Of a DNA stretch of 64,000 nt, positions 1,259-46,300 are shown piece by piece. The translations under genes were made by a program, and so were the position numbers. Source of the DNA: Polychytrium aggregatum (lineage: Eukaryota > Chytridiomycota > Chytridiomycetes > Polychytriales). Where the stretch lies: contig NW_026516347.1 in assembly GCF_025602895.1 (NCBI RefSeq), forward strand, positions 1 through 64,000, written 5' to 3'. The notes under the pieces are model-generated. The model ran no database searches, was not told the origin of the DNA, and was given only the letters and a program-made list of their open reading frames with translations. How positions within the stretch are numbered: the first letter of the stretch is position 1; each line of letters starts with the position of its first letter.

Positions 1259-4165
1259 TTAGTGCCAAAAGGGAACAACAACCAGAAGATCCAACAGCAG
1301 CATCTTGAACCCGACAGCCCAAAAGCTGGCTAGCGAATCAATGTAGCGTGGGCTCTTCAGGAGATCCGCCCACATGCTGAGTGACTGCAGAGTCAAGCCG
1401 TGAGCCAGCGGGGTCTGATCCGTTTCAGAAGCCGCCGCCCAGCCTCTTCCGGCCAAGATCTCGGCAACGGTGTTGATATGGATGGTGAGAGCGCAGTACC
1501 AGCCCATGACAGAGACCATGCGCATCATGTGCTCCTGATCCGAGCCCGTCACGCCGAGAGCCTCGTCGACGGATCGCAAGAGATCGTTCGTCTTGAGCAG
1601 CAGCAGCATCTCTCTGGGAAGCTTGGCCAGAATCTCGGCCAGGGCGATGTAGAACCGGCCAGAGCTGGCGTTGTTTTGGATGCGGTTGACCTCCCCGCGA
1701 GTGCGCACCGTGGCTAGCCCAGTCCCGCTGCCCGAGATGACATCCCAGGTGCGTCCGGTCAGCATCGAGGCGAACAGCCGGTGGTGGGTGATGTCTCCGT
1801 CGGCTCGCTCGGTAACATGGCGGTCGTACTTCGTGAAGATCTTGTACGAATACTCCTCGATCGCGTGCTCGTCGCCTCGGATGCAGGCCGCCCAAAGATG
1901 GGCATAGTCGAGTCGGAATTCGCGGGAAAGGGTGCGGTAGAGACCGTGGTCCACTGGGAACGAGTAAAGGAGCCAACGAGAGGAGTCGGTACGGCGTCAG
2001 AAGGTTGGCGTCCCCAGTATAGCCTTGGGTCGCTCGCAAGCACAGGGCAGGGCCGGAGAGCTGTGCTCAAGCCCGACCTTCGAGGAGCATCACAAAGCAT
2101 GTGCAGCACTTACACAGGACGATCTCAAAGTTTTCAGGATTATGAGGGGTTCGGGCAAAGAACGAAAGCCAGGTGCGCCGGGTGGCAGACTTTGGACGCA
2201 CAAAGAGGTTTCCGCTGAAGAAAGCATTAGACATGGCTCGCATTAGCACTACCCACGGGCGCAGTGTCGGCAAGACTGCTCGACGCTACCGGTGCCCATG
2301 GCATTGTCCATGTTGTCGCTTGTGCCGTCGTTCTTCTCATCGTCACAGCCTCATCCCCACCACTGCAGTCGCACAGTTTCGCTTACGGATGAGGATCGCA
2401 GTGGACAAATCTGGCATGGATGGATCGAGGCATAAGTAGGAGCTGGACATCATCGAGCAGGAGAGCCCGACCCAACGAGCAAGCGACATGTACACGGCCA
2501 TGAACCTACCCGTGCATAAATATCATTTCCGAGTACAGCCGGGTCAGGGCCGCGGACACACGCACGGGGTTGATGTTGTGCTGGTTCATGTACTTGAGAT
2601 CGTCGATGCGGGAGCCCTGGGCGACTGAAAACGAGTGCCGCCAGTGTCTCAGTACAGGGGACCCTGCGCAAGCTGCTGCTCAACATGCCGACCCACGAGC
2701 CATGACGGCTGGACTCACACTCCATGATGAGCACCCGACGGCTCGCCCAGTACACCTCCGGGATCATGAGGATGGGCTCGTTTGCAAAGTTCTTGGCGAC
2801 CTGGACCGAGTTTTCCATTTCATGCTTGAAGTCGAGCTCCTTGGGCAGCGACAGCTTCATCTCTGTCGCGAGCCAGTCGAATTCAAACTCAGGGAAAGCA
2901 TACTTGATCCAACTGTGCAAGCAAGTAACGGATGCACGGCCAGAGCAGTCCCGCAACGCAGGTGACGAGAGAACACGAGCAAAGCCCGTTGTGAGCAAGA
3001 GCAGAGGAGAAACGGCCATGCGGGATGCGTGGACGACCTAGCGTCAATGGTATCGATCGGCGGACCAGCAAGAAAGCAGCATCCCTGTGCAGATCCGCAG
3101 GCCGGCCGGGCTGAACCAAGGCGAGCAGAGTCGTTGGCCGAACCAGATGTGCCAAACATCAAGCCGCCCCTGCCCCAACCACTGTGATAGCTTACCTGAC
3201 GATGCCAGCGACGCCCTGGATGTCGATGTTGACAAACTCGTCGAGCGATGGATGCTGCAGCTTGACGGCCACCTCGCGACCGTTGGATCTGAGCCTGGCC
3301 TTGTGGACCTGGGCGAGCGAGGCCACGCCGAGAGGCTTGGGGTCAAACTCCTCAAAGAGGTCCGCAATCGAGGAGCCCAGGTCCTGCTTGAGCATGGCGT
3401 CGATTTCCTCGATGGACGATGGCGGGCACTGGTCCTGCAATGGCTTCATGGTCTCGGTGTACTCGGACGGCAGCAGAAAGACCAGAGCCGAGATGTGTTG
3501 ACCCTGGAGCCATGGGACATGCGAATCGCAGGGCCGGGAGTGAGCAGCAAGTTTGCCGTCCACAACGACAGCATCGGCACTGCATCGGTGTTGGGTCGGT
3601 ATTGCATCGGTATTGCATCGGCATTGTCGGCATGTAGGTTCAGACAGATTCGTGCATAATCTCTTCCCAAGGATCCGCAGGCGACGGGACTTACCAGTTT
3701 GATGTAGGTGCCTCCCTGGAGCCGGCACAGCGCTAGGAGCTTCTCGGCCGAGCGCTGGTGGACCTGCGACTTGAGGTCGGAATATGCATCCCAGCCGATA
3801 ACCTCGGGCTGCTTGTCCTTGGACAGCGTCGATTTGTAGTCCCAGACGATGGAGATGACCGAGGCAGCGGTGCGGTAGGATCTCAGGACCGCGATTGCTG
3901 CGTGCTGGCATCCGACGGGATCGTAGACGTAGTATCCCAGGGCGCCGGCACCAATGGTCAGCAGCGAAGCCACCCGCAGTGACATGCCCTGCGGCTTTCG
4001 GGCTTGGGAAGACCCGGCGGCACTCTGGGCAAAGGTCCTCGACGGTCCTGAGCGAGTGCCGGGATGCCAGCGGCCGGGCCATTGTGAAGGGGAGGGCAGC
4101 GACGGGGCAATCGACCGAGCTCTGGCCGCTCCCGACCAGAGCTGTCGCAGGGCCAGTCCAGACAT
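1259..4165 (-). CDS. ADCK1/MCP2-type ABC1 (UbiB family) atypical kinase
   Basis: This is a mitochondrial ABC1-family kinase-like ATPase linked to lipid and coenzyme Q homeostasis. Exons on the minus strand are 4165-3695, 3503-3196, 2912-2719, 2624-2510, 2410-2387, 2214-2114 and 1953-1259. They total 1908 nt and give 635 aa with every junction in phase. Visible motifs are the KxGQ element (GGTYIKLGQHISAL, formed across the exon 1/2 junction, about residues 152-163), LAQVHKARL, VAVKLQHPSL, the catalytic FVHCDPHPGN (about 364-373) and LLDHGLY (DHG in place of DFG, about 405). The N-terminus is Ser/Arg-rich and acid-poor, followed by a hydrophobic stretch near residue 65, as expected for a mitochondrial inner-membrane protein. 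It is divergently arranged with the DDX59-like gene. Exon 5 is only 24 nt. Confidence 0.9.
3571..3630. repeat. Imperfect GCATCGGT/TATTGCATCGG tandem repeat in an intron
   Basis: Short direct units built on ATTGCATCGG lie inside intron 1 of the ABC1 kinase gene. They do not touch the splice sites. Confidence 0.7.
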
Positions 4166-4412
4166 GGTTCGCTTGCAACGGAGGGGGCGACAGAAGACAG
4201 ACAGCGCAGCCAGCGGAGGACAGGGGTGCTGACGAGGGATGCCCGAAGGCGATTCGGCCTGGAGCTGCAGGGCTTGGGATTGCGATGGGAAAGCGGGTCA
4301 ATTTTTTTTTTTTTTTCCTGCTTGAATTGCGGATCTGGAAGCACAAGGGATCCGCGCGGGCCGATGCTCTCTGTCGTCGATCTCGCCATCGCTCGCCTCG
4401 CCTTGGCATACT
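4166..4412. promoter_or_regulatory. Divergent promoter between ABC1 kinase and DDX59-like genes
   Basis: The two start codons are 247 bases apart on opposite strands, so both promoters must lie here. A run of 15 T at 4302-4316 (poly-A on the minus strand) is the most conspicuous element and may be nucleosome-excluding. No TATA box is evident. Confidence 0.5.
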
Positions 4413-6773
4413 TTGTCGTCGGCGATATCAACATTGCATCGCATCCCGGCAGCCATAACGGACCAACACGAGCAGACGATACCGGCCAAGCGGCCCGAGA
4501 CAGGCTCGCCTCCCGGGCCCAAGCGCCTCAAATCACTCGCAGCGAGCCTGTTGTCGATCGAACCGATATCGACTCCTGCGGATGCCAGCACCCACGACGG
4601 CGTTGCTCAAAGCGTCGTCCTCCACAGCCCCGATGGGCAGCATCGCATTCCTGCTGAGTCGGACCCAGCCCTGGATCTGAGGTGCTTCAACATCAGGCCT
4701 ATCGTTTCCAATCCAGAGATGCCCCCAACGGATGCTCCTCAGCTCGCTGGCATCGACGCAGATGCCGAAATCGATCCCGTGGCCCTATTTTCGTATCAGC
4801 AGCCATGGCCGCAGCCGGGCGATCCGCTCTGCTGCGTCTGCGGCCGGTACGGCGCATATATATGCGATGTCACCGACCACGATGTTTGCTCGCTGGAATG
4901 CAAGGCTGCCGATCTTGAACAGTATCTCCGGACGATTACAGCCCATCGCTCTGAAGCGCCCGGACAGAGCCGCAAACCGCCGACACCACCCGTGCGCCGA
5001 TGGAGAGAGCCCCCGCTCCCTCCTCCGTCGCCTGAGCTGAGAGTCAACCGCTCGCACCTGCTTCGGCTGATGCGACAGTCCCGGGGCGGTCCTGCTCGAA
5101 CTGCTCCATGGACACAGATCGCAGCGCTGGTCGAGCCATCCGGGATAACTGTAGCATATGAGGGAACAGAGCCGCTCCCACTGCCAATCGCAGAGTTCAG
5201 TCAGGCCCCTGCCTTGCCAGCAAAGCTACTGAGCAACATGGCTCTCGCTGGTCTGAGACGACCAGGCCCGACCCAGAGGATGGCGATTCCCTCGATCATG
5301 GACGGATTAGACGTGCTCCTGACAGCCCCGAACGACGGAGATCGTAGTCTATGCTATATCATTCCGGCCATCTCCTTCTGCGCTGCCATCTCGACGTACC
5401 TCTCTGCAGCCAAGTCGCCAATACCCCAACACCAGAAGGGTCCCTATGTCCTCATAATGGCGCCGACACGAGAACACTGCGTCCAAATCGAGGATCGCAT
5501 CAAGGCGCTGGCAAGCGGAATCGAGCGTCTCAAGACCGTCCTGCTGGCAGGAGGCTGCCCGCTGCCGAATCAGCTGCACCGCCTCGAACAAGGTATTCAG
5601 ATCGCCATCGCAACTCCAGGAAGGCTGGCATCGCTGCTTGCATCGGACTCGGGCAAACCTTACTTTGAAAGCCTTGCGCTCATGGTTGTCGACGGCACGG
5701 AAGGCATGATCGAGGGCAGCACCAAAGAGCAAATGTCGACGGTTCGCAAGCTGCTTCCAGGATCCAAGCGCATCCGAGTCTGGTGTGCGTCGATGGCATC
5801 GCCGGGGGTCCTTGACCTCTGCATCAAGCCTGGCCCTGGCAAGAAACCCAAGGCCGGCATGGCCAAATCCCACGCCACTGAGACACATACCCTCTGGATC
5901 CACCTTGGCGCGCAGTTGCCGACTATTCAGAATGAAGGCGCCAAAGTTGCAGCGTCGCATGAGATAGTACCCGATATCCCCGAGAGCGTGAAGCACACGT
6001 TTCTGTGGGTTGAGACCCCATCGAAGCCGAAGCAACTCATCTCCATCGTCACAGACACAAAGTACTTTCGTCCGCAGCAGCAGCGACTCTTGGTCTTTGT
6101 GGAGTGCAGAATCGGCGCCGAGATGCTCGCCAAGTGCATCAAAACGCAGTCCACCCTCAAGGCCGTTGTGCTCCACGGCGAGAAGACCAACCGGGAGCGA
6201 GAAACAGCCCTGGAACAGTTCACGGAGGGGCAGCACGGGATCTCGGTGTGCGTGGCGACCGGAGTGATGGCACGTAGCATCGCCGTGGAGGCCGATCTGG
6301 TGAGTCTGCTGCTCGCCTTGGCACGTCGGTGACGCTGAGTATGGTGGAGAAGCATCGTTTCTATCTCACGGGGTAGTAAGCGTGTGTGTCGACAGGTACA
6401 ACCGCGATACTCACTACCCGATATGCGCTCTTGTATTGTGGAATAGGTGCTCAACTACGATATGGCACTCTCAGGTAAGGCCCAGTGCACCAGGAGTGGC
6501 TGCTTCTTGGAGGTACCTTGAGCGAAAGCACCACCACATCTGCTACGCAATGTACTGACCCAAACAAACCATGATGGCCCTGCAGTTGCAAGCTACATCC
6601 ATCAAATCCGGCGCTGCCGACCAAGCAAAGATAAACTCGGCTGGGCAATCACATTCATCAATAGAGACCATGAGAAGCTCATCCCTGAGCTCGTCGCCAA
6701 GCTTAATCAGCTCCCCGCCGGAACCGTGACACCGCTGCCTGCTCAGATGAAGCGACACCAACGACCATCATGA
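4413..6773 (+). CDS. DDX59-like protein: HIT zinc finger plus degenerate DEAD-box helicase
   Basis: Exons 4413-6299, 6447-6474 and 6586-6773 give 700 aa in phase. A HIT-type zinc finger (CCVCGRYGAYICDVTD, then DVCSLECKA, about residues 139-167) closely matches that of DDX59. A Q-motif-like segment and a two-lobe DEAD-box fold follow, with APTRE, ATPGRL and VLNYDMALS recognisable. The ATPase signatures are not intact. Motif I, normally AxTGSGKT, reads TAPNDGDRS (about 304). DEAD reads VVDGTEG (about 426). SAT reads ASM. The HRxGRxGR motif reads SYIHQIRRCR. I infer a DDX59 orthologue that has lost ATP-dependent unwinding and works as a binding scaffold. The exons are clean, so it is not an obvious pseudogene. 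Confidence 0.85.
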
Positions 6774-6991
6774 CCCGCACACTCCTGACTCGCCGACAAG
6801 CAAATATACCTCCAAGCCAATCCATAGTCGATGGCGAGTTCGTGTGGATAGCATCTCTGCGTATCTCACTGGGCTCTGGCGACAGATGGTGCCGGTAGAC
6901 ATACTGGCCGGACCAGCGTGCGCTCAGGATCCAGAATGGGGCGTCCACTGGCCTTGGTCAATCGCTTGTACACTGTTATTGGATCGCCTTA

Positions 6992-7017
6992 CACTTTATT
7001 CAGAAAAAAACGGGACA
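6992..7017 (+). repeat. Left terminal inverted repeat
   Basis: It starts CACTTTATTCAG directly after the TA at 6990-6991 and ends AAACGGGACA. Read outward (minus strand) it contains AATAAA eight bases from the element edge. Confidence 0.9.
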
Positions 7018-7089
7018 ATATAGCCGTTTCCATGAACATGTAGTATGTGCTGTGCTTGCGTCAAGCAAAGCCACAAGAAATAAAACAGA
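6992..7089 (-). ncRNA. Candidate Fanzor guide-RNA (omega/fRNA) end
   Basis: This is the non-coding segment between the Fanzor stop codon and the element edge. The same block is kept almost unchanged in two derivatives that lost nearly all of the protein (10968-11065 and 25998-26096). In the Fanzor sense it can fold TGCTT-GACGC-AAGCA, closed outside by TGTG/CACA. It ends in a T run and AATAAA just inside the TIR. In TnpB/Fanzor systems the guide RNA overlaps the nuclease gene's 3' end and runs into flanking DNA. The RNA itself is inferred, not seen. Confidence 0.4.
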
Positions 7090-9533
7090 TCACTTTGGCA
7101 GCCTCCGAGTGAAGACCGCCGGTCGCTCTCCGATCTCCACAATCGACCTGCATACTGTGATCATGTTGCGCGCCGCATTGACGTCGCGATTCCACACTGT
7201 CCGGCAGCTGGGATTCTTGCAGCTCCTGACAAAGTGGGAATTCGCAACACTGGGCGCATCGAGTCCTTCCAACCGAACTGGCTCCAGGCACTTGGAGCAC
7301 ACTTGCGAGGTGTTGAACTCGTTCGTCGAGGCCACCTTGACGCTTCCATGATGGTGATTGGGACGGCGTCGGTGGTGCTCGAACTGCTCAAAGTACCGAG
7401 CAAATCGCTGCCTCCGAGGGCTGGATGCATAGCCCTTGCCCTGTCGCCATGACGCATTGCCAAAGGCGATCACCACATCGCTCTCCCTCGGGACGTGCTT
7501 CAGGACGGCCTTGCACATCCTGTCGACGGCCACTTGGCGCCTCTTGTGGCCCGTGAAGCGATGGTGACGGGCCTTCTTGCCAAGGTGGAAGTCGAGCTGC
7601 ACTCGTAGCTCCGGTCGCAGGACATGGGTGAGATGGACCTTGAAGGCCTCCGAGGACTGCACCTTGGGCGAGGGGGTGGTCGACATCCAGGTCTCGATGC
7701 CGAGTCGATACTTCATGGTGTTGTGCCACTTGGTGTTGGACGTATGGCCACACATTTGCTGGTAGTGGCCATTGGAGAATGAGACCACCTCGTCTTGGTG
7801 GCCCGGTGCTTGGATGACCGCCGTGAAGATGGAGCCGACTCCAGGATCGATGCCAATCCAAGTGGTGCGATCGGGGTCTGGGTCGCCGATGTGGGCCTGG
7901 ATACGCTGCTCGGCAGTCGGAGGAGGCTCAATGGTCTCGGTGCGATCGGTTCGAGGCAGAAACTTGACGAGACCGATGGTGCATCCAATGCCATCGGTGC
8001 TGATCTCGTAGTTGAACAGCTTCTTGTTCACGTCCCGCTCTTGGAAGAGGGAACTACGCAGCTTGAAGCAACTGCGCCAGAGACGATCCTGGTTGTTGAC
8101 ACCGTCCTCACCTTCTTCCTTGAGCATGTCCCTGGTGAGTCCAAGGCGCTTCTTTGGACCCAGGAGTTGCCAAAGAGTGACCGTGTCGATCTTGACATAC
8201 TTGGCCCTTGCAGTACAGAGAGGGACCATCGTGCACACGGCCGGAGGAGTGTCCAGAGCGAGCTGCTTGAGTGCCCACTTGAGTCTGGATGCCAGCCTGT
8301 TGATCTTGGACTTGGTGGTGCCGAGCTCAGACTTGGCCGTGGTGAACCTCTTGTCGTCGGAGGGAATGCCTCGGGCAGTGAGCTCGTCCAGCTTGGCCTG
8401 GCGCTGCAGCTCGGTGACTCGGAGAGCGGGCATGTCACAGTCGATCCACTTGTGGACATCGTCGACCATCTTGTCCCGGGCGAGGATTCCCACATGGTGT
8501 GAGAGGCGATGGAGGGCCCGGAAGCGTCCTGGTCGTTGCTGTACCGAAACTCGTCCAGGACGTGGCCAAAGTCGGGATAGAGGAACTCGAGATCGGCCTT
8601 GGGTGGAGTCTGCCCTGGTTTCTCGAAGAGCTCGAGACAGGCCTCGATGGCTTCGTGCTTATGCTTGTTGGCTGGGAAGACAGCAGCACAGAAGCGACGA
8701 AGGAGTCTCCAGTAGGCCAGATCGAGGTGGGTGGTGCAGTTGGTAGCATAGGCATTGACAGCCAGTGTGAGAAGCTGACTGTGAGCACCGTCAGGCAGAC
8801 GAGGGGCCGGAGGCAGGTCTGCGTGCCGAGTGGTCTGGTAGTCGCGAAAGGAAGCGACCAGATGCTCGTTGTATTTCTTGGTATCCCTGGCCGTCGAGAG
8901 GGCACCGGCCTGGACGATCTTGAAGCATTGGCGGATGAAAGCAGGGGTGGACTTGGAGATGACGGGGACGGGAAGATCCTGCTCGATGCACCGGAGGATG
9001 TGCAGGTTGAGCAGCCTGGATGCCTCGAACTGGATCTGGGTCATGGCCTCGACGGTGGCCTGGATCTTGTCGCGGAGAGCGGGATTGAGACAACAGCCAT
9101 CCATGGCCTGCTTGAAGCAGCTGAACTGAGGGGCGGATGACCTTCCATCCACGAGTGGGACGACAGAACTCTTGAGGGGCCGGTATTTGGGACATTTGCT
9201 AGTGTTGCTTCGCTCGTGGTCGGTACCGTCGCACTGGCGACATCGCTTGATGGGACCAGATGAGGGACCAGATGAGGGACCAGGCTCGGTGGGATCGACA
9301 TCCATTGGATCTGCAGAAGCAGTGGTGGTGAGCGACGGAGCAACAGACGAACAAGCATGCGTGGGGTCAGAATACGAACCAGAGACAGGCTCCGACTGTG
9401 ACTTGGCTTTCTTGGGCCTGGGTGGCCGAGGCTGGCCATCACCGGTACCCTTACGCTTCGGAGGCATGGGGGCAGAGGATGCTGGATGCCTGCCAGTGGT
9501 ACTGGTCAGAGCAGAGACTTTTTTATCGTACAA
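7090..9533 (-). pseudogene. Fanzor nuclease (TnpB-like), with one frameshift
   Basis: The N-terminal half (9533 to about 8510) has a basic, Ser-rich start, a CxxCx4Hx8C knuckle (CRQCDGTDHERSNTSKC) and helical blocks. The C-terminal half (about 8510-7090) holds the RuvC-like nuclease: WIGIDPGVGS (first Asp), STNEFNTSQVCSKC (catalytic Glu plus the first zinc Cys pair), CKNPSC, and WNRDVNAARN (third Asp). The protein would be about 800 aa, within the Fanzor1 range. The halves are in different frames and join near GGGCCC at about 8513-8518, where a single missing base explains the break. Catalytic residues are intact. Start choice is uncertain: MYDKK at 9533, or MPPKRK further in. No intron is needed to explain it. 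Confidence 0.88.
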
Positions 9534-9717
9534 TGGCGCGATGATCAGATCAAGGCGAGATGAGGGAAGAAAGCAGCAGGACGAAGGTGCGGCATTTATA
9601 CCCGAGAGCAGGAGCCCGTCTGCGCGGGCTGGTTGGGGAAGTGACCCTGTTCAAAAATCGCCGAGAGGTTCAAGCCAGGGATTTGAGCGTGAAAATGGCG
9701 GAGTGATTGGAGGGAAC

Positions 9718-10621
9718 TCAACCCCAGAAGCGCATCGCTCGCTCAATCAGCCGTGGGAAGACATCTGGAAGCACCCTCCGAACGGCAGACTCAAACAGGG
9801 TCACCATCCCGACTCTGAACCCCTCGGACGCATTCAGCGCTGCTGCCTTCCTGTATTGACGCTTCACAATCCCAAAGAAGTTCTCGATGGGATTGAAGTC
9901 GGGCGAGGCAGGTGGGGTGAAGATCACTGACCATCCTCGGCGCTCGATGCAGTCCAGGACAGCCCTTGTCTTGTGCATGCTGACATTGTCCATCACAATC
10001 ACAGAGTCGTCTGGGAAGCTCGCTCGCTCAAAGAACTCGACCATCGAGTGTGTCTTGAATGATGTGGGGATGTACATGCGATGCAGCCGAGACAGACTTG
10101 TGTTTCATGTGATTGCGCTGGCGAAGCGGAGCACCCTTCGGTGAGTATCCGTAGAGAGGGAAAATGGATCTCCTGATCCCTATCTCATCGACAAAAACGA
10201 ATCGTCGTGGGTCGATGGAGCGGACCTGGTCCCTGAACTGTGCCACTCGCTCATCCAGTCGCTTGGACTTGTAGAGGTGTGTTGCCCTCTTGTGTGAGAG
10301 ACCTGCTCGGTGGATGGCAGTGTGGCAGAGTGAGAGTGATACTTTCCTCTGGAGGATGGACTCGAGCTTGCATCGCAACACAGGACCAGTCTGGAACGGG
10401 TCCTGTTCAATCAGGGTGCGAATGACTGGACATGCCTGCTCGAAGAAAGTGGATCTGCGAGCTGGGACCCGGGATGGGTCATCCAGCTTGCATCCTCGGT
10501 GCCATCGATGGATGGTGCTTTTGGACACATTGAATATGGAGGCGACCTTACGCAGGCTATGGATGAGGGCGTAGCATCGCAATGCGGCGGTGCGAAAGTC
10601 GGATGTGTGGCGAATGGTCAT
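9718..10621 (-). pseudogene. IS630/Tc1-mariner transposase, DD34E, frameshifted
   Basis: The N-terminal part (10621 to about 10085) has a helix-turn-helix (KVASIFNVSKSTIHRWHRG) and the first catalytic Asp in FVDEIGIRR. The C-terminal part (about 10077-9718) carries VIVMDNVSMHK (second Asp) and SPDFNPIENFFG (Glu), with exactly 34 residues between them. The parts lie in different frames, and the join after KHKSVSAA seems about ten residues short of the usual spacing. A small deletion with a frame change near 10070-10090 therefore probably inactivates it. Its start codon is 84 bases inside the right TIR. Confidence 0.9.
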
Positions 10622-10679
10622 GGCCAGCGCGCGATAACATTGGGTAACAAAATATTCGATGAATGGTCAAAATCCCGGG

Positions 10680-10705
10680 TGTCCCGTTTTTTATTGGATT
10701 GCCTG
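10680..10705 (-). repeat. Right terminal inverted repeat
   Basis: On the minus strand it reads CAGGCAATCCAAT followed by AAAAAACGGGACA. It abuts TA at 10706-10707. The same end recurs at 26277-26302 and at 31363-31388. Confidence 0.9.
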
Positions 10706-10707
10706 TA

Positions 10708-10849
10708 ATCTGCGTCCATGCAAAGATCAGAAACCAGCGTGCACATTTTACAGCGAAACAGGGCACTCTGTTTTGTGCCAGGACTGCTGCTTTTTTTCTG
10801 GGACCTGGATACACCCATGCATCGCTGTGCTGCGATACTGCAGTTTCAG
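10708..10849. other. Spacer between transposon and its inverted end copy
   Basis: These 142 bases are not recognisable as transposon sequence. They separate the right TIR from the inverted Fanzor-end copy. Confidence 0.4.
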
Positions 10850-11065
10850 CTACTGGACGATGTGGAATCGCCAAGTCAATGCGGCGCGCAACATGATCAC
10901 AGTATGCAGGTCGATTGTGGAGATCGGAGAGCGACCGGCGGTCTTCACTCGGAGGCTGCCAAAGTGATCTGTTTTATTTATTGTGGCTTTGCTGACGCAA
11001 GCACAGCACATACTACATGTTCATGGAAACGGCTATATTGTCCCATTTTTTTTCTGAATAAAGTG
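10850..11065 (+). mobile_element. Inverted copy of the Fanzor 3' end
   Basis: It is a near-identical inverted repeat of 6992-7205. It encodes the last Fanzor residues (MWNRQVNAARNMITVC to TRRLPK, ending at 10967; RuvC-III Asp changed to Gln) and the full non-coding end. It stops at a CACTTTATTCAG terminus (minus strand) next to TA at 11066-11067. No matching opposite TIR was found for this copy alone. Confidence 0.85.
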
Positions 11066-11067
11066 TA

Positions 11068-11618
11068 ACTCATGTGCGGAGCTCACTCGCTGCGCTCCAG
11101 ACCAGCATCGGAGGTGTGTGAACACTGCCGAGACTCACACACATTGCTGTGCATGCTACAGACAGCGTTGATTGGGCAGCCGCAGATGCCAGCGTATCGA
11201 CCGACGACGTCGGCTGATTGACCCAGCGGTGACGTGATGGCAAGATTGACAAAAGCCAAAATAGCAAGTACGAGAGGGATCGAGCAAGCGCAGGACCGAG
11301 AGGCAATGTGGCGGACAGCCAGGTTCGCCCGTCGGCCACATGCGCATAGTGTCGCTCTGCAGACTCTGGCCGAGGAGAGAGAGAGGAGAGGGAATTCTCC
11401 GTTGCCGTTGGGATATAAGCAGCGCTCGTCCTATGGCACACGGCCATCGCCTCAGTCCCTATTGCTGCACTCTCCTTCGCCCTTGTCATCTATCGCCGCA
11501 CATCCCGGACTCTGAATCTGCCCTCCCCCCCCCGACAACAGACCCCGCCGACGCTACCAAGCGAGTGCCTGTCTGGTCCCAGGAGCAACTCATCTCTCCG
11601 GAAGCCAAGTAATCCAGC
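11068..11618. other. Upstream region of the CFAP97 gene
   Basis: No gene is seen. It holds a purine-rich stretch (about 11379-11397), a TATA-like site at 11412-11419 and a C run at 11524-11533. Confidence 0.5.
11411..11420 (+). promoter_or_regulatory. TATA-like element
   Basis: GGATATAAGC lies 200 bases before the CFAP97-domain start codon and is a plausible core promoter if the 5' UTR is about 170 bases. Confidence 0.4.
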
Positions 11619-30994: not shown

Positions 30995-31363
30995 ATGTTG
31001 CCCCTCCTCCGCCATTTCCCGGCCTCGTTCAAGTCCGCAGCGACCCGGACCGCCTGCCTCCATTCCTCGGCCCCACGCAACTTCCGCCCGCCGCCCTTTC
31101 GGTTCGAGCAATACGTCAACGACCTGGGGCGATCGGCCCCGCTCGGCAGTCGGCTGCACATCTCCTACGGCATCGGCTGGGGCTCGCTGCTGCTGATCAA
31201 CACAGCCATTGCCGGGCTCGATGGGCAGAACAAGATCCTCGTGGCCGCAGCGTCGTGCTTCTTTGGCCCGCTCGTGACGCTCTATCTCGCCTTCACGACC
31301 TCGAGACACCGGCATCCATCGGATCTGGAGCGTCGTGTTTGGGAGCTCGAGCGGCGCTCCTAA
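30995..31363 (+). CDS. Small mitochondrial-type membrane protein
   Basis: A single exon of 122 aa. The N-terminus (MLPLLRHFPASFKSAATRTA) is Arg/Lys/Ser-rich without acids, a mitochondrial presequence. Two hydrophobic segments (ISYGIGWGSLLLINTAIAGL and ILVAAASCFFGPLVTLYLAF) make a hairpin, followed by a basic/acidic tail LERRVWELERRS. The family is not recognised. The TAA stop at 31361-31363 is shared with a transposon: TA is the target duplication and the final A is the first base of the element. The downstream flank after the second TA also begins with A, so the stop existed before insertion. The gene's own 3' UTR was displaced by 553 bases. Confidence 0.65.
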   Translation: MLPLLRHFPASFKSAATRTACLHSSAPRNFRPPPFRFEQYVNDLGRSAPLGSRLHISYGIGWGSLLLINTAIAGLDGQNKILVAAASCFFGPLVTLYLAFTTSRHRHPSDLERRVWELERRS

Positions 31364-31915
31364 AGTCAATCCAATAAAAAACGGGACACCCGTGATTTTG
31401 ACGATTGATCAAATATTTTGTTACCCAATGCAATCGCGCGCTGGCCATGACCATTCTGTGATTTGAATCAAGGGCGTCATTGTGGGAATCGCTTCCAGCT
31501 CAAGATGCGCTAGATGAGCACCACACCAAGTCCCAAGATCCATGAGTGCTCGGTGAACGAGTTCAACACATCCCAGGTATGCTCACCTTGTCGGGAAGCC
31601 AAGCGACTCGAGAAGGTCGAGCATCTTGATATCGAGAAACCACACTTTGTCCGGAGCTGTGCAAGCTGCCATACGCTGTGGGATCGAGACATCAATGCAG
31701 CCAGGAATATGATCTCGGTATGCCAGTCGATCATCGCCACAGGAGATCGACCGGGTGTATTCAAGACTGTGCTTCCCAAACCAACAAAACAAATAGATTG
31801 CCAACCAGGACGGGAAACAATCGCATGGCTTGCTCACTGGGGCCTACAGTCAGTCAGCGGGGTTCAGATATCTGAAGCCAGGAAGGAACTGTCCCGTTTC
31901 TTTCTGGATAGACTG
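31363..31915 (+). mobile_element. 553-bp internally deleted Fanzor-mariner element
   Basis: It is flanked by TA at 31361-31362 and 31916-31917. The two 26-bp ends match at 21 positions. The left end and about 90 bases after it match the transposase side of the 6992-10705 element. After a short unique stretch, 31514-31768 encodes a Fanzor tail: STTPSPK fused directly to VNEFNTSQVCSPC, then HFVRSCASCHTLWDRDINAARN. The zinc ligands and the RuvC-II and RuvC-III acids survive, but RuvC-I and the N-terminus are gone. The reading frame runs on to a stop inside the right TIR. Confidence 0.9.
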
Positions 31916-38308: not shown

Positions 38309-38395
38309 ATGCGTGGAATCGTGACGCCAGCGCGGCATGCAGCATGATCATCGTGTGCAGGACAATTGCGGAAACCGGGGAGATCTTGGTTTGGC
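38309..38395 (+). mobile_element. Fanzor C-terminal relic, second subfamily
   Basis: One frame reads AWNRDASAACSMIIVCRTIA then ETGE, which aligns with WNRDVNAARNMITVCRSIV and EIGE of the Fanzor. The RuvC-III Asp is kept. It shares a stretch of more than 25 identical bases with the relic at 26463-26489 (opposite strand). No termini are recognisable. Confidence 0.7.
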
Positions 38396-39121: not shown

Positions 39122-42100
39122 ATGCATCAAATCATTCGGCTCTTCCTGAGTCTGGCCATCGTCGCCGGCCTCGCGCTCTCCGCTGCTGCCATCCCCAACC
39201 CAAAGACTTACACCGTCGGCGCCATCGACCTCACCGTCTTTGATTTTGTCGAGACCGGCTTCACCAATGACCCGACCCTGCAGTCGCCCATGATGCTGTT
39301 CTGGAGCATCCTGAACCTGGGCACCGCCAACGAAACTCTGCATGCTGCCCTGGTGCTCGACCCAAAGCGCTCCTCGGACGACGAGGTGCAGAGGGAAACC
39401 GTCGCGAACTCGTGGATGGGCTTTGCCCTCGGCAAGACCATGCTGACCGCCGACTTTGTCATGGTTTGGGCCAACCCTCGCGATAACAGCACTGTCAAGC
39501 TCATCGAGGCCCTCTCGCCTGGCCAATACAGCCCGCCCAAACCCGCTCCGCAGAAGCTGTTGACGCCCGGTGTGCTCTCTCAGCAGGGCAACGTCGTCGT
39601 CGCCGAGTTCTATCGTCCAACCCAGGTGTCGATTCCGAACCGGCTCTCGATCAACACCGCGGGACTCACCGATACGATATGGTGAGTCTGCTGTCGTTGC
39701 CCTGCTTTGGATATGCAGTCGGCCGCAGTCGGCCGCAGTCCCCCCCCCCGATCTGCATGTGGGACTCACCAATGTGATCGCCATGAGAGCCTGGGCCTTG
39801 CACAACGGTGGGATCGTTGAGTGCATCGCCGTTCGCTGTCTCACACCCCATCGCCCTTTTGCTCCGTCTCTTGCAATCCAGGGCATACAATGTCGATCCA
39901 GACCACAACAGCCCCGGCGGATGGCAGTTTTACCACGGCTGGAACCGCGGAGGCATCACCTTCAACTTTGCAACGGGCGCAAACCAGGTGCAGCCCTACG
40001 GCCTGTCCCGCACGCCAAAGTACATCCACGGCGGTATCATGATGCTCTGCTGGCTGTTGCTCTATCCCGCAGGCATCTTCTGCGCTCGCTACTGCAAGTC
40101 CCTGCCCCGATGGCTCTGGATCCACGTCATACTCCAATCTGTCTCCAGCGTGCTCGTCTGGGCAAGCGCCATCTACATGCTTGTGTCGCTGCCGTCCATG
40201 AACTGGCTGGTGATCCACCGCCACACCATCCTTGGCCGTGTCTTGGTCTCATTGCTGGCAGTCCAAGTCCTCTTGGGCTTCTTGAATCGGCTCGGCCTCA
40301 GCTCGGAACGGATGGCCCGAATTCGGAGCTGGATCAAGCTCTCACACGACATCCTTGGCTGGCTGCTGATCCTGGCCTCCATCGTGCAAATCGGCTTTGG
40401 CATCCAGAACCTGTGGCCCTGGGAGGTGGCCAGCACCGGAAGCGGACAGATGTTCACCTTTTATTTCCCGTGGGTGCTGTTCTTTTTCCTCGTTCTGGTG
40501 TGGCTCATCCTCTTTTGCGGCGCCGAGGTCTACTACCGTATCTCCATCGTCAACTACGACCGGCCAAAGATCAAGACCCGCCTCCGTCTTCTGCGCCGAT
40601 TCAAAACCATCGACGAGTACGAGGCGCCCGATACCATGCGCAAGCCGCAGCTCCAGCTTCAGAAGGGTGTCGACATCCAGAGCCAGTATCTGACCAGCGT
40701 CTCGCCCTTCACCTGGAACGACATCAACGATCGCGTCTTGAGGGGCGACATCCTCGTCGTCGCCAACGGCAAGTTTGTTTATGACGCATCGCAGTGGCTG
40801 ACCTCGCACCCGGGCGGACAGGTCATTCTGTACTCGTGTGCTGGCACCGACATCACCAACGACTACTTCCAGTACGTATGATGTGTGAGCGACGGCGCAT
40901 CGGTGCGTACTGTGATGAGCCGGCACCTGGCCTGCTCTTGCGAACGGGGCAATGTTCGCAATGTTCGCAATATTCGCAATATTCGCAATGTTCGCAATGC
41001 ACGGGATATGCTGTTCTTCTCCTTGCTTGCTGTTCTTCTCCTTGCTTGCTGTTCTATTCCTTGCTTTACTTTGCTGTGCTCACCACACACACTCATATCC
41101 GCTTTGTTCACGCATACAGCGATGCCGGCTTTGATGCCGAGGAGTTTGTTCCGCGACCCACCCCAACCGCCGCCAACACCCTTCGCCGCCGCCGCAACCT
41201 GTCCCGATTCGACCAGACCTTTTCGAGCCCAAAACCGGCCGAGCTCTCGCGAAAGCCCACGGTCTCCCCGCCCGTCGACAACTTGCGCTTCCCGTACCTG
41301 AGCCAGCAAGAGATCGAAAATGTGATCCGCGCTCGTCGCACACACGTCCACACTCGCCTTGCCATCGAACGTCTGTCCTCGCTCTTGATCGGACAAATCG
41401 TCACCGATCCCGGTCTCTCTTCTCCGAACGACGAGCCCCTCTTTGATCCAGCCGAGTTCCGCCGATATGCCTTGGTCCAGTCCATCCGCGAGACTCAGCC
41501 ATCGTCAGCGGCGCAGCCATACTACCGTCTCAAGTTTGCCCTGCTGTACCCACACGACACTCGCTACCGCGAGCCCAAGATGCTTCTTCCCGGCCACGTC
41601 GTCGAACTGCAGCTCCGAATCCGCGGCAGACTGGTGTCGCGCTACTTTACGCCAATCGAGGGTTCGCTCATGTCCGCGATCGAGATCATCGTGCGCCTGA
41701 ACCCCAAGGGTGAAATGAGCCCGTATCTGGTTGACCAGAAGCCCGGCGACAAGCAGTTCAAGATCCGCGGGCCGTTTGGTACCCCGCTTGTGAACCCGCA
41801 GCGACCCATCAACAACGACGGCCAGTGGTGCTACCAGCGTATGGCTTTCTTCACCAACGGCTCAGCTCTGACTGCGGGACTACATCTGCTGAACTTTTTG
41901 TTCTTCCCGACCGAGGTGCCGATCAAGGTGAGTTGATTTATCTCGCTGTCGAGCTTGGCGGTGTCGTGATTGTAGCAAAGATTGGCACTGACGGACTGCT
42001 TGGCCCCCTGTCCTCACCCAGATCAGCATGGACTATCAAGCGCAGCATCCGGACGAGCTGAATCTCAAGCGAGGCCAGTGGGTCGTTGTGCGGACGCACT

Positions 42101-42603
42101 ACTACGACGGCTGGGCAGAGGGCCAAAACATGACCACCAATCAGACCGGCCTGTTCCCGCTCGTCGTCACCAAGCCGCGGTGCGGAACCGAGACACAGCT
42201 GACCATCGTCAACGTCGTCCGCAACATCCATGAGATCTGCGGGTCGTACCTGATGGAGGGAGCCCTGCTCTCGTATCCCAACCAAGTCCGCATTGTCCAT
42301 GTTCTGACGGGCGGTCCGCCCTCCGACCCCCACGGCGTCGTCAAGACCTATGCTCCCGGTAACATCATGCTCGGCAAAGTCGGCACTGCCATCGTCGACA
42401 GCATCCTGGGCGACCCCAAGTACGGCCTTCTCCGCGACCCGACGGCAGGGGGACAGACTCCATTCGGCAATGTGCGGCAGCGCATCTACATCTGCGGCAC
42501 GCGGTCGTTCTCAGGACGGATGTACGAGACCATCATTGACGAGCTGGGCTATCACCATGGCGACATCTACATCCTGCCCGACGAAGAGAGTGTCCATCGC
42601 TAG
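39122..42603 (+). CDS. DOMON-cytochrome b561-cytochrome b5-FNR protein with inserted SH3 domain
   Basis: Exons 39122-39681, 39882-40871, 41120-41927 and 42022-42603 give 979 aa in phase. A signal peptide (MHQIIRLFLSLAIVAGLALS) is followed by a DOMON domain (about 28-220). Cytochrome b561 helices (about 230-400) carry His in KYIHGG, WIHVIL, VIHRHTILG and KLSHDILGW. Cytochrome b5 (about 458-525) has HPGG and a second heme His in DYFHDAGFD, whose codon is assembled by splicing. A flavin lobe shows SRYFTPIEGS (RxYT) and KIRGPFGTPL. Exon 4 opens with an SH3 domain (DYQAQHPDELNLKRGQWVVV, DGWAEGQN, TGLFPL, about 788-838). The rest of a nucleotide-binding lobe follows (YICGTRSFSGRMYETIIDEL). The usual GGTGITP reads FFTNGSALTAG. 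It is probably a transmembrane electron-transfer enzyme. NAD(P) binding is doubtful. Confidence 0.88.
40951..41064 (+). repeat. Two tandem tracts inside intron 2
   Basis: GCAATGTTC/GCAATATTC 9-base units (40951-40999) are followed by three copies of CTTGCTTGCTGTTCTTCTC-like sequence (41010-41064). Both lie within the intron of the DOMON-b561 gene. The second adds pyrimidines upstream of the acceptor. Confidence 0.8.
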
Positions 42604-43351
42604 TCCGACCGCCTTCATCACCACATCCCACTCCATTTTTGCTGTTATTCTCTGCCTGTTTGTGTTTTCTCAATATCAGTCATACATTGGTCGCCGGCTT
42701 AGATGGCCCACCCGCCTGTGTTTGCACCATGAATGGGGGGGGGTGTTCACGATCCATGTTCTGCACAGGGTGGACCAACCTGCACCAGCCCGATATATGC
42801 AGTATCCCACGCCAGCGCCATGGCCAAGAGCGTCCGCTGGTGGCAACCGCCCCCAATCCATGCGATCCTGGCGACAAACCAGCGCGCCGCGCCGCCCAGC
42901 CAAAGCGACCCCTGCTCATCCGGGTCTTGCGATCGCCGTTCGTTCGCTCGTCCGTCCATCGTTGTTCGTCCATCGTCCATCGTTCATCGTTCATCGTCGC
43001 TCACTCGGTCACCAGCGCACTTCCCGCCGACACGAATAACCTGGATATCGCCCCGTCTGCCGGCTATCGATTCCTCGCACTATCACCACCATCGCTTCGG
43101 GCTCTGCACCCGCCACCGTCTTCTGTCCGGCAACGACTCCCTCGGACGGCACTCGTTTCCCTACAACTGCTACTCGACAAAGGTCGTCGCCTCGTCCTTC
43201 GGATACCTCCACCCGCTCATCTTCAGTCGCCACGCACAAGTCCCATCGGGCCCATCGTCAGTGTCCTCTCCCATCTCCGCCCCGATCTCCACCGATCCCT
43301 CCTCTCCCGCATCACTGTCCGCCTGGCGCATCCCTCTCCTCCTCTGTCCAT
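42604..43351. other. Intergenic region with TCGTCCATCGT repeats
   Basis: Upstream region of the tuberin gene. Imperfect CGTCCATCGTTCAT units lie at about 42948-43002. A G run lies at 42735-42742. No gene is seen. Confidence 0.5.
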
Positions 43352-46300
43352 ATGCCCCGCACTGGTCTTGAGAAGGGTATCCAGGCCTGGACGCTGAGGC
43401 TGCGGGCCCGCATCGAGGCCCTCTCCCGTCCCCTCAACTCTCCCGCCAGCACAGTTGCCACCAGTCCCAGCACCATCGACTCGGGCTCGGCTGCTTCTGG
43501 CCTTACCTCGCTCCAAGTCCTGGCGACCTTGGTGGACCAGCTCGCTCTCTTCAACCTTGCCCGCCGCCCCGAAGCCAGTGCGTCGCCGCAGCTTGAAACA
43601 GTCCCCTCACAGGACGGAACCGAACCGACCGAGCTCGCCAACAGCAACCTGGTTCAGATCCTGACGGATATTTCGCGTCTCGTCTTGGTCGTCGACTTGC
43701 CTTCGGAGGTGGCCGATATCTGGGAGCTGGTTGCTCCATGGACTGGGCCCGATAAAGAGCCCCAGATTCGCAGGGCCGCTTTGGGCTTTATCCCAGCCTG
43801 CCTGAAAGGCCAGGGCAACCACATCGATACGCTGCGCTATGCCTTCTTCTCGGCCATCAGCGACTCGCAGGACGACGCAGCGCAACGTTCGCAATCGCAG
43901 TCGCAACCTCAGCCTCAAGTGATCCCGGACCTGGATATCAAGTTCGCCATTCTCATCGCCCTCACCAATGATGGCCGAGACATCCGCTACATCGAAAAGG
44001 GTGTGGTCGCCTTGATCAGCCTGTGGATTACGAGACTGCTGGCTCTCCGGCCGCTGGCTACGGTCGTCCGTCCATCAGCAACTTCGGTCGCCGTCGCCGC
44101 CGCCGCTGTCGCCGTTTTCACACCGCTTGACGAGCCCAGCCATGAGCACAACGCTGCCGAGACCAACGGTCCCGTTGGGATATCGCCGGCGGATCCCTCG
44201 ACGGCACATCTTCCGGGCCAGGAACTCGTCGCTCTCTTTGCGCTCTTTGCCAACCTCCTCCGATTCCACCCGGCGCATTTGCCAGCAGATCAGATCCAAC
44301 AGCTCCTCGAGATCGTCTATCGCATCAGCATCGAGCCTGTAGACGAACTCGCCGAGCACTGTCTCGCTGTGCTCGACATTATGCTGCGGTACGGCTCGCT
44401 ACGCCTCGACTCGCTCAATGTGTATGTCTTTGCCCTCTGCCGGTTTGTGACGGACCACAACCGCTCGGGCACCTGCTGGAAGATCATGAAGAATCTGCTC
44501 ATGTAGGTCAATCGCGCCGGCTCCTGTTCTTGACCTATAGTTTGAAGCATTGTCTCCTCCTCCTCCTCCTGCTCCTGCTCCTGCTCCTGCTCCTATTTTT
44601 CCTCCTTCGTGATCAGGGGCCATGCTTTGCGTACCGTCCCCACCATTCCTCGACTCACCACCCTGTGTGCGTCTCTTGGTCCTTCCATCTGGCCATGTCG
44701 TCGTCCTTGCTATAGGTCGCAGTTCACCCAACCCGCCATGAAGATCCTCTGCGGCATCATCCAGGGCAAGATCAGTCTGCCACACCACACTCGACCCAAT
44801 ATTCTGCGCGGCGCCGTGTTCTTCCTCAGCATCAGCAACTGGGGCCGCAGTCAGATCCATAACCTCTCCTATTCGCCCATGTATCTGATCCAGTGTCTCC
44901 GAGAGGCAGCCCGCAGCCGAGTCGACATTGCCGATGCCGAGATCCTGATTTCCCTGGTCCGTCTTACCCGCAAGGACTCGCACGTCTTCTCGATGCTGGA
45001 GTGGGATCTGATTATGCAGGTCTGGAGCGTCCTTGGTGAATACTGGACCGACAGAGAGCGGCCCGTGCAGCTGCTGCTCGGCGACCCGGGGCTGGTTCGA
45101 GAAGATCTCGTCCGGGCCCAGCTCCCCACCCTCGAGCTCATCCTGAAGCTCCACAATCAACTCACCATCACCTTGACGGACGTGTATCTCAACTACCGCG
45201 GCGCATCGTCCGTTGCCTTCTTTGACCGGCTGCTCGACTTGGCCCCGCATCTCTTCGATGGCCTTGCAGAGACCCTGATCCAAGTCAACTCCAATTGGTC
45301 GTGGTATCCATCCTTCCCACGGTGGATCGCGGCAATGTCGAGTCTGACGGCGGCATACATGCCGTTGCACGAACGCCCCGCCATCCGCACCAAGCTCTTC
45401 GAGATTATGGAGCAGAGTTGGTACAATGTCCCGCTTGCCGAACAAGATTTGTACTTTGAGCAGATTCTCCGGCCGTTCCTATCGACGCTGACAAGCGAGT
45501 CCGATTCCACCATATATCAGCGTGCCGTGGCCTTTACCGTGCTGCTCGCCAAGGAATGCAACGACGCCCAGTTCAACGTCATTGCTTCGACCCTGATCCA
45601 GTGCTCGCTCAACAGCTGCTCGACCCAGATATACAGCTGGGGCGGAGAGAACGACTTTGACGTGGCTAATCCCGAGCAGCTCGTGTCGGTGCCCGGCTTG
45701 CTTGCAGAAGACGCCTCGGCGAGGGCAGCCGCTGCCCTTGTGGGACTCTTTGGACAGTGCCTGCAGAGTATGAACGGCCCGAGATGTATCACGCTCTACT
45801 GCCATATCGGCAGGATTGCCGCCTTGCAATCGGCCCCCACGTCGGTCCGCCTGGTGTGCTGGACGTTTCTGACTCGCCTCCGTGCCGATGTCGAGTACTG
45901 GCTGATCTGCCCTGTTCAGCAAGATTCTGATGCCGGGACGCCCCAGGCCGAACAGGCCAAGGCCGAGGATGCCCTCGAAACCTTCATCGTCAGCCGACAT
46001 GTGGTCTGCAACACCACCACGTCGGCCCCTCGCCCGTCGCGGCCCAGCGCTCGCCCAAACGCATCCGAGGCTGTTCTGCTTCCGGTGGACAAGTACTGCA
46101 ACCTCATTGCCAAGCTACTGCGAGAAGAGAGGGACTGGCCGGTCCTGTGGCACATCCTGACCTACTTCTCGCCGCAGCTCCGCAACGTTTACTTTTTTCA
46201 AGGCGTCTCTCCGATCATTCAGTCGGTGCAGGACGTCATTCACGACCTGATCACCGGCGAGAAGGCCGGCGCTGCCGTTTCCAACCTTCCCAGCAACGTC

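What the first reader, a model, noticed from the sequence alone, without database searches (positions are those of the whole stretch)
6992..10705. Complete-ended mariner/IS630 transposon carrying a Fanzor RNA-guided nuclease
Seen: matched 26-bp TIRs, TA on both sides, a DD34E transposase and a Fanzor with all three RuvC acids and the zinc Cys pairs. Known: Fanzor1 genes ride on several eukaryotic transposon classes. Inference: here the nuclease 3' end abuts one TIR, so its guide would be set by the insertion site and could promote copy retention after excision, as for TnpB.
Basis: partly seen in the sequence, partly recalled or inferred. Interest (0 to 1): 0.85.

Follow-up and report, generated by a model that had tools for sequence, protein, structure and literature searches.

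The report
Cut-and-paste transposon carrying Fanzor nuclease
A eukaryotic jumping gene present in hundreds of copies carries, besides its own cutting-and-pasting enzyme, a relative of the CRISPR-like RNA-guided DNA cutters called Fanzors, and the DNA next to its copies bears a lopsided mark that looks like that cutter's recognition signal, which makes the unknown role of such cutters testable.

Summary
The element at 6992-10705 is real: an IS630/Tc1-mariner (DD34E) transposon with TA on both sides and a Fanzor1 gene whose 3' end points at the left end. The 26-bp ends match at only 19 of 26 positions, and the window's copy is broken in both genes. The family is large: 260 left-end and 418 right-end matches. 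Of 29 near-full copies scanned (some allelic), 21 keep a Fanzor frame of at least 788 aa and 14 keep both genes. A C-terminal profile finds SpuFz1 first in the PDB.

Main new observation: the presumed TAM-side flank reads TAA at 96 of 100 listed exact right ends, the guide-side flank TTA at 17 of 100 listed exact left ends; host background is 13%. This predicts a 5'-TTA TAM at the empty site that the occupied site lacks. No empty allele was found for 29 sites. Allelic copies have near-identical flanks (0.15% different) but 2.4% different interiors: exchange among copies or mis-assembly, unresolved. Fanzor in mariner elements and ghost elements are in print. Copy retention or homing is consistent but not shown.

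The parts
6992..10705 (.). Complete-ended IS630/Tc1-mariner element of family A (3714 bp; many other copies 3730-3741 bp)
   Evidence: same ends in 20 other near-full copies, 18 distinct flank sets
6990..6991 (.). TA target-site copy at the left, guide-side, end
10706..10707 (.). TA target-site copy at the right, presumed TAM-side, end
10706..10708 (-). TAA on +, read as 5'-TTA on the Fanzor strand: predicted TAM of the empty site
   Evidence: 96 of 100 listed exact right ends; 28 of 28 flank sets with TA on both sides; prediction, not tested biochemically
6992..7017 (+). Left terminal inverted repeat (LE)
   Evidence: 260 matches at up to 2 mismatches
10680..10705 (-). Right terminal inverted repeat (RE)
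   Evidence: 418 matches at up to 3 mismatches
7090..9467 (-). Fanzor1 gene, frameshifted in this copy between 8523 and 8526; about 790-aa open frame in other copies
9718..10621 (-). IS630-family DD34E transposase gene, frame broken near 10082-10086; 310-aa open frame in other copies
6992..7092 (-). Predicted omega RNA scaffold: non-coding tail after the Fanzor stop with two predicted hairpins, the last closing 5 nt before the left end
   Evidence: z -1.7 against letter shuffles, weak; the first 166 nt of the left end are kept in the 4 family-A ghosts mapped
6970..6989 (-). Predicted guide: host flank just outside the TA; length assumed from other OMEGA systems
   Evidence: Anatomy; SpuFz1 guide of 14-15 nt read in PMC10432273
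25998..26302 (-). 305-bp ghost of family A, same orientation: LE 1-166 joined to RE pieces, no complete gene
31363..31915 (+). 553-bp ghost of a related family (B), opposite orientation to the main element (Fanzor end on +), with TA on both sides
10847..11065 (+). Left-end fragment (219 nt, 95%) of family A, opposite orientation to the main element, TA beyond it
38313..38382 (+). Decayed Fanzor C-terminus remnant
   Evidence: 77% over 70 nt

Best explanation
This is a high-copy cut-and-paste transposon that moves by its own IS630/mariner transposase and carries a Fanzor1 nuclease as a site-memory module. Transcription through the Fanzor 3' end and the left terminus makes an RNA whose 3' tail is the host flank, so each copy is programmed for the place it occupies. 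The nuclease recognises 5'-TTA (the TA target site plus one T on the right-end side) followed by that flank. This sequence exists only when the element is absent from the site: in the occupied site the left end puts GTA before the flank, so the copy does not cut itself. Cutting empty alleles or sister sites forces repair from the occupied copy and keeps or spreads the element. Shown: element, ends, TA duplication, both genes, signature residues, copy number, pN/pS below 1, the one-sided TTA mark, ghosts that keep the left end. Inferred: RNA, TAM, cleavage, repair outcome.
For: Exact right ends followed by TAA: 96 of the first 100 listed; exact left ends preceded by TTA: 17 of the first 100 listed (both recounted). 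Fisher p about 3e-33, with allelic duplicates not removed; A after TA is 12.7% in window host DNA. In flank sets with TA on both sides: right A 28 of 28, left T 7 of 28. All 10 short (279-1110 bp) left-right pairs found in the two lists also have TAA, as expected if ghosts are served in trans. Two uninterrupted copies of a related family (L072, L073) align across the joined flanks of site L070/L071 with the dinucleotide once and the A behind it. Precedent: SpuFz1 TAM is CATA and a CA is conserved outside the 5' end of S. punctatus Fanzor and ghost elements (PMC10432273). pN/pS 0.32 for Fanzor (22 frames) and 0.21 for transposase (17 frames). Families A and B both fold a hairpin near the 3' end of the scaffold. 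No empty allele for 29 sites.
Against: No RNA, cleavage or mobility data. The one-sided A could be an oriented target preference of the transposase, whose two ends differ in their outer half. Filled second alleles may simply be old insertions in a nearly homozygous genome, and the empty-site searches score only the best 40 candidates. If the TAM is TTA, footprint sites left by the usual mariner excision would escape the nuclease. Fold z-scores (against simple letter shuffles) are weak for family A (-1.7), for the ghost (-0.4) and for B over 110 nt (-0.5); only the last 52 nt of B is strong (-3.8). The low synonymous diversity of the last 75 Fanzor codons cannot be claimed for the RNA, because diversity is low at both element ends. 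The empty-site alignment favours a target-borne A by only 4 score units, and L072 has CA where the TA would be. pN/pS rests on interiors that may be chimaeric. The window's related-family ghost has CTA, not TTA, on its right-end side.
Confidence: 0.55

Rival explanations
1. The TTA mark is an oriented target-site preference of the transposase: the asymmetric synaptic complex always places its right end next to the A of TAA. The Fanzor is a passenger with no part in site choice or retention.
For: LE and RE differ in their outer halves, so an oriented complex is conceivable. T is also enriched at right +4 (20 of 32; p about 2e-5 against background), a neighbourhood effect that a transposase could produce.
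Against: Mariner-type target preference is usually symmetric (recalled); the left side shows only background-like T (17 of 100). Fanzor frames have pN/pS 0.32. A conserved TAM-side flank is known for SpuFz1.
Confidence: 0.3
2. Fanzor-assisted homing with gap repair: breaks at empty or excised sites are repaired from the occupied homologue with template switching into the many dispersed copies. This leaves identical flanks, intact ends, patchwork interiors and internally deleted derivatives.
For: 12 allelic pairs: flanks differ at 32 of 21,626 aligned positions, elements at 1055 of 43,686. Differences come in stretches (L025/L031: 65 of 66 within about 2.0-3.25 kb). At one site the same flanks lie 3614 bp apart on C21 and about 305 bp apart on C404, as for a ghost (the C404 bases between were not read). 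A high-copy RT element shows the same 1284-aa frame in many listed places, so gross base errors are unlikely.
Against: Linkage between variants is near background beyond about 30 bp, shorter than usual conversion tracts. The terminal windows differ little between unrelated copies too (3.2 and 1.0 differences), so sparing of the ends is weak evidence. One left flank dropped from the flank count (L044/L045, 206 of 1816 positions) also differs. No control repeat with allelic pairs could be read. One pair (L014/L015) differs at 1 position only. Repeat mis-assembly predicts much the same pattern.
Confidence: 0.25
3. The interior differences between allelic copies are assembly or polishing chimaeras of a repeat with hundreds of copies, and say nothing about Fanzor.
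For: Interiors differ and flank-anchored ends mostly agree; linkage is lost within 30 bp; contig C81 ends inside an element; L036 shares the right flank of L009 but not the left; a stretch beside another repeat differs in the same way (L044/L045 left flank).
Against: Many rare variants persist (242 of 536 biallelic sites are singletons), open Fanzor frames are kept in 21 of 29 copies, and one pair agrees at all but 1 of 3738 positions.
Confidence: 0.5
4. Fanzor works mainly in trans as a nuclease against rival elements or host sites rather than for copy retention.
For: A ghost at C34 and its counterpart at C79 sit head to head with the left end of a related family, sharing one TA, so their guide would be that family's end.
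Against: Only 2 places, probably one site, match that junction pattern in the whole genome; for most of the 29 sites the flank matched only itself and an allele among the 40 candidates scored.
Confidence: 0.08

Closest known systems
Spu-1 / SpuFz1 (Fanzor1 of Spizellomyces punctatus; PMC10432273, sections 7 and 11 and passages read; PMC3627910, section 7 and passages read)
   Same: Fanzor1; TA target sites (putative, PMC3627910); guide end at the Fanzor 3' end; ghost elements that keep the RNA end; conserved extra bases outside the 5' end (CA there, T here); best PDB match of our C-terminal profile (E 2.4e-4)
   Different: No transposase was found inside Spu-1 ends; here an IS630-type transposase is present. 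Single-sequence phmmer gives only E 0.28. Copy number is higher here (260 LE matches, against 42 Fz loci and 134 ghosts reported). Predicted TAM TTA instead of CATA.
Mariner elements with Fanzor1 and transposase, PGv-1 and PUl-1 (PMC3627910, section 7 read)
   Same: Fanzor1 plus mariner-like transposase between TIRs with TA TSD
   Different: PGv-1 is described there as single-copy and also codes a GIY-YIG nuclease; here a large family with two genes
GtFz1 (Guillardia theta Fanzor1; PMC10432273 and PMC11423790, passages read)
   Same: TAM TTAAN resembles the predicted TTA; second PDB match (E 0.018)
   Different: Its loci are reported to seem to lack IRs, with no clear transposase association
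TnpB of IS200/IS605 as site-memory nuclease and gene drive (PMC11870625, outline and abstract read)
   Same: Guide taken from the flank; retention or drive of the element
   Different: HUH transposase and single-strand peel-and-paste in bacteria (recalled); here a DDE enzyme

Membership tests
Fanzor1 | RuvC triad with DPG at RuvC I and alternative Glu six residues before the zinc finger (ExxxxxxCxxC) | tested here: met
   DPG at 539-541, E715-FNTSQV-C722xxC725, D760; D, E and D in 22 of 22 open frames; rule from PMC10711439 passages
Fanzor1 | Zinc-ribbon and RuvC III domain of the TnpB/Cas12f kind | tested here: met
   PF07282 38 bits, cutoff 26.3; NCBIfam guided_TnpB 27 bits, below its cutoff of 100
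Fanzor1 | Sequence kinship with solved Fanzor1 proteins | tested here: met
   Profile A2: SpuFz1 E 2.4e-4, GtFz1 E 0.018; single-sequence searches gave E 0.28 or nothing
Fanzor1 | Fanzor fold | tested here: inconclusive
   AlphaFold2 on a 7-row alignment gave mean pLDDT 34; no fold search made
Fanzor1 | RNA-guided DNA cleavage | not testable with these tools
   Needs biochemistry
OMEGA (omega RNA) system | Structured RNA at the element end running into the flank | tested here: inconclusive
   Hairpins predicted for A and B, mostly weak z-scores; no Rfam match at 6400-11300; no RNA data
OMEGA (omega RNA) system | TAM on the side opposite the guide | tested here: inconclusive
   One-sided TAA at 96 of 100 listed exact right ends against TTA at 17 of 100 listed exact left ends; not biochemical
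Tc1/mariner/IS630 | DDE transposase, DD34E | tested here: met
   D145, D221, E256 with 34 residues between; NCBIfam IS630 125.3 bits, cutoff 100; DDE_3 85 bits
Tc1/mariner/IS630 | TA target-site duplication | tested here: met
   28 of 32 flank sets have TA on both sides; paralogous uninterrupted sequence with the dinucleotide once
Tc1/mariner/IS630 | Terminal inverted repeats | tested here: met
   19 of 26 positions by eye; 76% over 29 nt
Homing or copy-retention element | Restoration at empty or excised sites | not testable with these tools
   No empty allele found for 29 sites, which is not diagnostic

The most novel reading that the evidence does not exclude
A eukaryotic DDE cut-and-paste transposon uses Fanzor as a homing nuclease: it cuts alleles that read TTA plus the remembered flank, and gap repair with template switching among hundreds of dispersed copies refills the site. 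This makes insertions homozygous, keeps the ends uniform, reshuffles the interiors and sheds ghost elements that still carry guide RNAs.
Probability: 0.22. Interest if true: 0.88.

Novelty: new member of a known kind. Interest (0 to 1): 0.58.

Why it matters
The Nature 2023 paper states that the biological role of Fanzors is unknown and that no transposase was found within the Spu-1 ends. This family keeps transposase and Fanzor together and open in 14 of 29 copies scanned, with many comparable insertions, ghosts and allelic pairs in one genome. It offers a ready TAM prediction, natural guides and a direct test of retention or homing for a DDE transposon.

Tried and rejected
Footprint idea: that the SpuFz1 TAM CATA equals a Tc1-type CA footprint plus TA. 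Dropped as the main reading because here the conserved extra base (T) lies in the flank outside the TA, and a CA or TG footprint would not give TTA.

RIP-like mutation as the cause of interior differences between alleles: rejected, ordinary mixture of changes.

Recurrent RE-like left flanks: suggested by the window (14 nt, 13 matching) and L028; the genome count of GCCNNTA before the exact LE was 6, against about 4 expected by chance (expectation is my estimate). The window's own 14-nt match stays unexplained.

Guide capture from rival elements as a general rule: 2 places only.

Low synonymous diversity of the last 75 Fanzor codons as RNA constraint: not claimed, since both ends of the element are low.

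Structure prediction failed (pLDDT 34). A viral-contig search with the Fanzor found nothing. Rfam none. The bacterial promoter scan is not relevant to a eukaryote. The RVT_1 search was meant to find a control repeat; its loci could not be cut out, so no allelic control was made.

Left out of counts: L016, L036-L039 and L042 were not scanned because my end patterns did not fit them, and L044 and L045 repeat L012 and L019. In one search the window ghost (left TG, right TAA) did not fit the pattern; L028 and L043 are allelic and both counted. In one search, L022 was mis-cut by two bases. In the flank totals the left flank of L044/L045 (206 of 1816 differences) and all indels were left out.
Full report
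OBSERVATION. The stretch 6992-10705 is bounded by TA on both sides (6990-6991, 10706-10707) and ends in CACTTTATTCAGAAAAAAACGGGACA on the left and the reverse complement of CAGGCAATCCAATAAAAAACGGGACA on the right. The 13 inner bases are identical; the outer 13 mostly differ, so 'matched 26-bp TIRs' is too strong (19 of 26 by eye; one search gives 76% over 29). The genome of the window (64.7 Mb, 418 contigs) holds many copies. The left 26-mer is found 260 times at up to 2 mismatches and the right one 418 times at up to 3, each with 0 for the reversed control. The 20 other near-full copies read have the same ends (right end with up to 6 mismatches) at 18 distinct flank sets.

GENES. The transposase (310 aa in intact copies) passes the NCBIfam IS630 cutoff (125.3 against 100) and Pfam DDE_3, with D145, D221, E256 and 34 residues between the last two, in 17 of 17 open frames. 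The other gene has the TnpB-type zinc domain (PF07282, 38 bits), DPG at RuvC I and the alternative glutamate six residues before the zinc finger, the features that separate Fanzors from most TnpBs in PMC10711439 (passages and section 25 read). Single-sequence searches of the PDB found nothing significant (SpuFz1 at E 0.28). A profile of the C-terminal 266 aa, including two fragments of a related family B, found SpuFz1 first (E 2.4e-4) and GtFz1 second (E 0.018). So I call it a Fanzor1. The window's copy has both genes frameshifted. One search shows 31 rows, two of which repeat other loci; of the remaining 29 copies (some allelic; 6 further fetched loci not scanned there), 21 have a Fanzor frame of at least 788 aa and 14 have both genes open. 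Scanning all 35 loci L009-L043 gave 25 distinct Fanzor frames of 785-795 aa and 17 transposase frames; pN/pS is 0.32 over the 22 Fanzor frames of exactly 790 aa and 0.21 over the 17 transposase frames.

GUIDE END. Fanzor runs on the minus strand and stops 98 bases before the left end. The last 101 bases fold into two hairpins, the last one closing 5 bases before the end; family B has a different sequence but a 12-bp hairpin closing 8 bases before its end. Against simple letter shuffles the z-scores are -1.7 (A), -0.4 (ghost), -0.5 (B, 110 nt) and -3.8 (B, last 52 nt), so this is suggestive only. The four family-A ghosts mapped keep at least the first 166 bases of the left end: 214 in L049, 166 in L050 and in the window ghost (one lineage), 446 in L051, with right-end pieces of 97 to 663 bases. 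By analogy with SpuFz1 (75-nt scaffold, 14-15-nt guide; section read) the host flank just outside the left TA would be the guide.

TAM-SIDE ASYMMETRY. Of the 100 exact right ends listed, 96 reappear in the list for right end plus TAA (172 places in all); of the 100 exact left ends listed, 17 reappear in the list for TTA plus left end (40 in all); both recounted by script. Fisher p is about 3e-33, with allelic duplicates not removed. In host DNA of the window A follows TA in 12.7%. Of 32 flank sets read (some allelic), 28 have TA on both sides; all 28 have A at the right and 7 have T at the left. The four without TAA (L018, L021, L028 and its partner L043) also lack TA at the left. All 10 short pairs of ends (279-1110 bp) found in the two lists have TAA. 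One site, L070/L071, lies inside the terminal part of a related element (family C). Two uninterrupted copies (L072, L073) align across the joined flanks with the dinucleotide present once (TA in L073, CA in L072) and the A behind it, which supports a 2-bp duplication and an A that belongs to the target; the margin over the alternative is 4 score units. In S. punctatus a CA is conserved outside the 5' end and the TAM is CATA. By the same logic I predict 5'-TTA here, close to GtFz1's TTAAN. The occupied site shows GTA before the guide, the empty site TTA, so self and target are told apart. Against it: the single family-B ghost in the window has CTA at that side, and an oriented transposase preference is not excluded.

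EMPTY SITES AND ALLELES. Joined flanks of 19 sites and of 10 more gave no allele lacking the element. The tool scores only the best 40 candidates; an empty allele of high identity should have ranked first. For 19 of 29 sites a second, apparently filled place was found: 12 read in full, 3 seen by BLAST on the fetched partner, 4 by the spacing of the flank matches only. At one of these the flanks lie 3614 bp apart on C21 and about 305 bp apart on C404, as a ghost would give; the bases between were not read. At another the element spans 3739 bp on C9 and 3414 on C79. In the 12 full pairs the flanks differ at 32 of 21,626 aligned positions and the elements at 1055 of 43,686; left out is one left flank next to a family-B fragment (L044/L045, 206 of 1816 positions differ), and indels. 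Differences come in stretches; terminal windows differ less, but they also differ little between unrelated copies. Linkage among 20 copies falls to near background by about 30 bp. This is either mis-assembly of a repeat or real exchange among copies. A high-copy RT element with the same 1284-aa frame in many of the 150 rows listed speaks for good base accuracy, but it is no allelic control. I leave this open.

MECHANISM. Most likely (0.55): transposase moves the element; Fanzor remembers the site through the left-end RNA and cuts TTA plus flank where the element is absent, so that repair keeps or spreads it. Footprint types are recalled from Tc1 biology.

KNOWN OR NEW. Fanzor1 in mariner elements was described in 2013 (PMC3627910, section 7 and passages read); RNA-guided cutting and ghosts in 2023 (PMC10432273, sections 7 and 11 and passages read). 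Four searches, Fanzor with TAM and mariner (4 of 4 papers listed), Fanzor alone (40 of 82 listed), Fanzor with transposase and excision (12 of 27 listed) and Fanzor with chytrid (1 of 1), listed no paper whose title or shown abstract start reports a one-sided TAM mark or allelic patchwork in a Fanzor mariner family. The library lacks most subscription journals and most listed papers were not opened. I file it as a new member of a known kind with two observations worth testing.

Noticed in passing
12 allelic pairs, e.g. L025/L031 and L044/L045: Interiors of allelic copies differ (40-136 positions in 11 pairs, 1 in the twelfth) although flanks are nearly identical; linkage is lost within about 30 bp. 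Exchange among copies or mis-assembly.
   Followed up: partly
G000:C21:70842-74457 versus C404:90914-91219: The same flanks lie 3614 bp apart on one contig and about 305 bp apart on the other, as for a full element and a ghost; the C404 bases between were not read.
   Followed up: partly
window 6976-6989: The left flank ends in 14 bases that match the right terminus of the family (13 of 14), directly before the TA.
   Followed up: partly
L009 and L036: Two copies share the right flank but have different left flanks: recombination between copies or a chimaeric contig.
   Followed up: no
G000:C34:104913-104938 and C79:592348-592373: A family-A ghost sits head to head with the left end of a related family, sharing one TA, so each would have the other's end as guide.
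   Followed up: partly
G000, e.g. contigs C115, C173, C11, C75, C1:1275421-1320684: A reverse-transcriptase element with the same 1284-aa open frame in many of 150 listed rows, often several to a contig.
   Followed up: no
window 3195-6329, 40785-48142, 59459-61570: Host genes: ABC1-type kinase, DEAD helicase, FAD-binding oxidoreductase domain, tuberin/Rap-GAP, weak beta-propeller match; the host is a GC-rich (59%) eukaryote not identified here.
   Followed up: no
window 31363-31915 and L044 6198-6584: Family B, a second Fanzor family about 61-66% identical at the C-terminus, seen here only as a ghost and fragments.
   Followed up: partly
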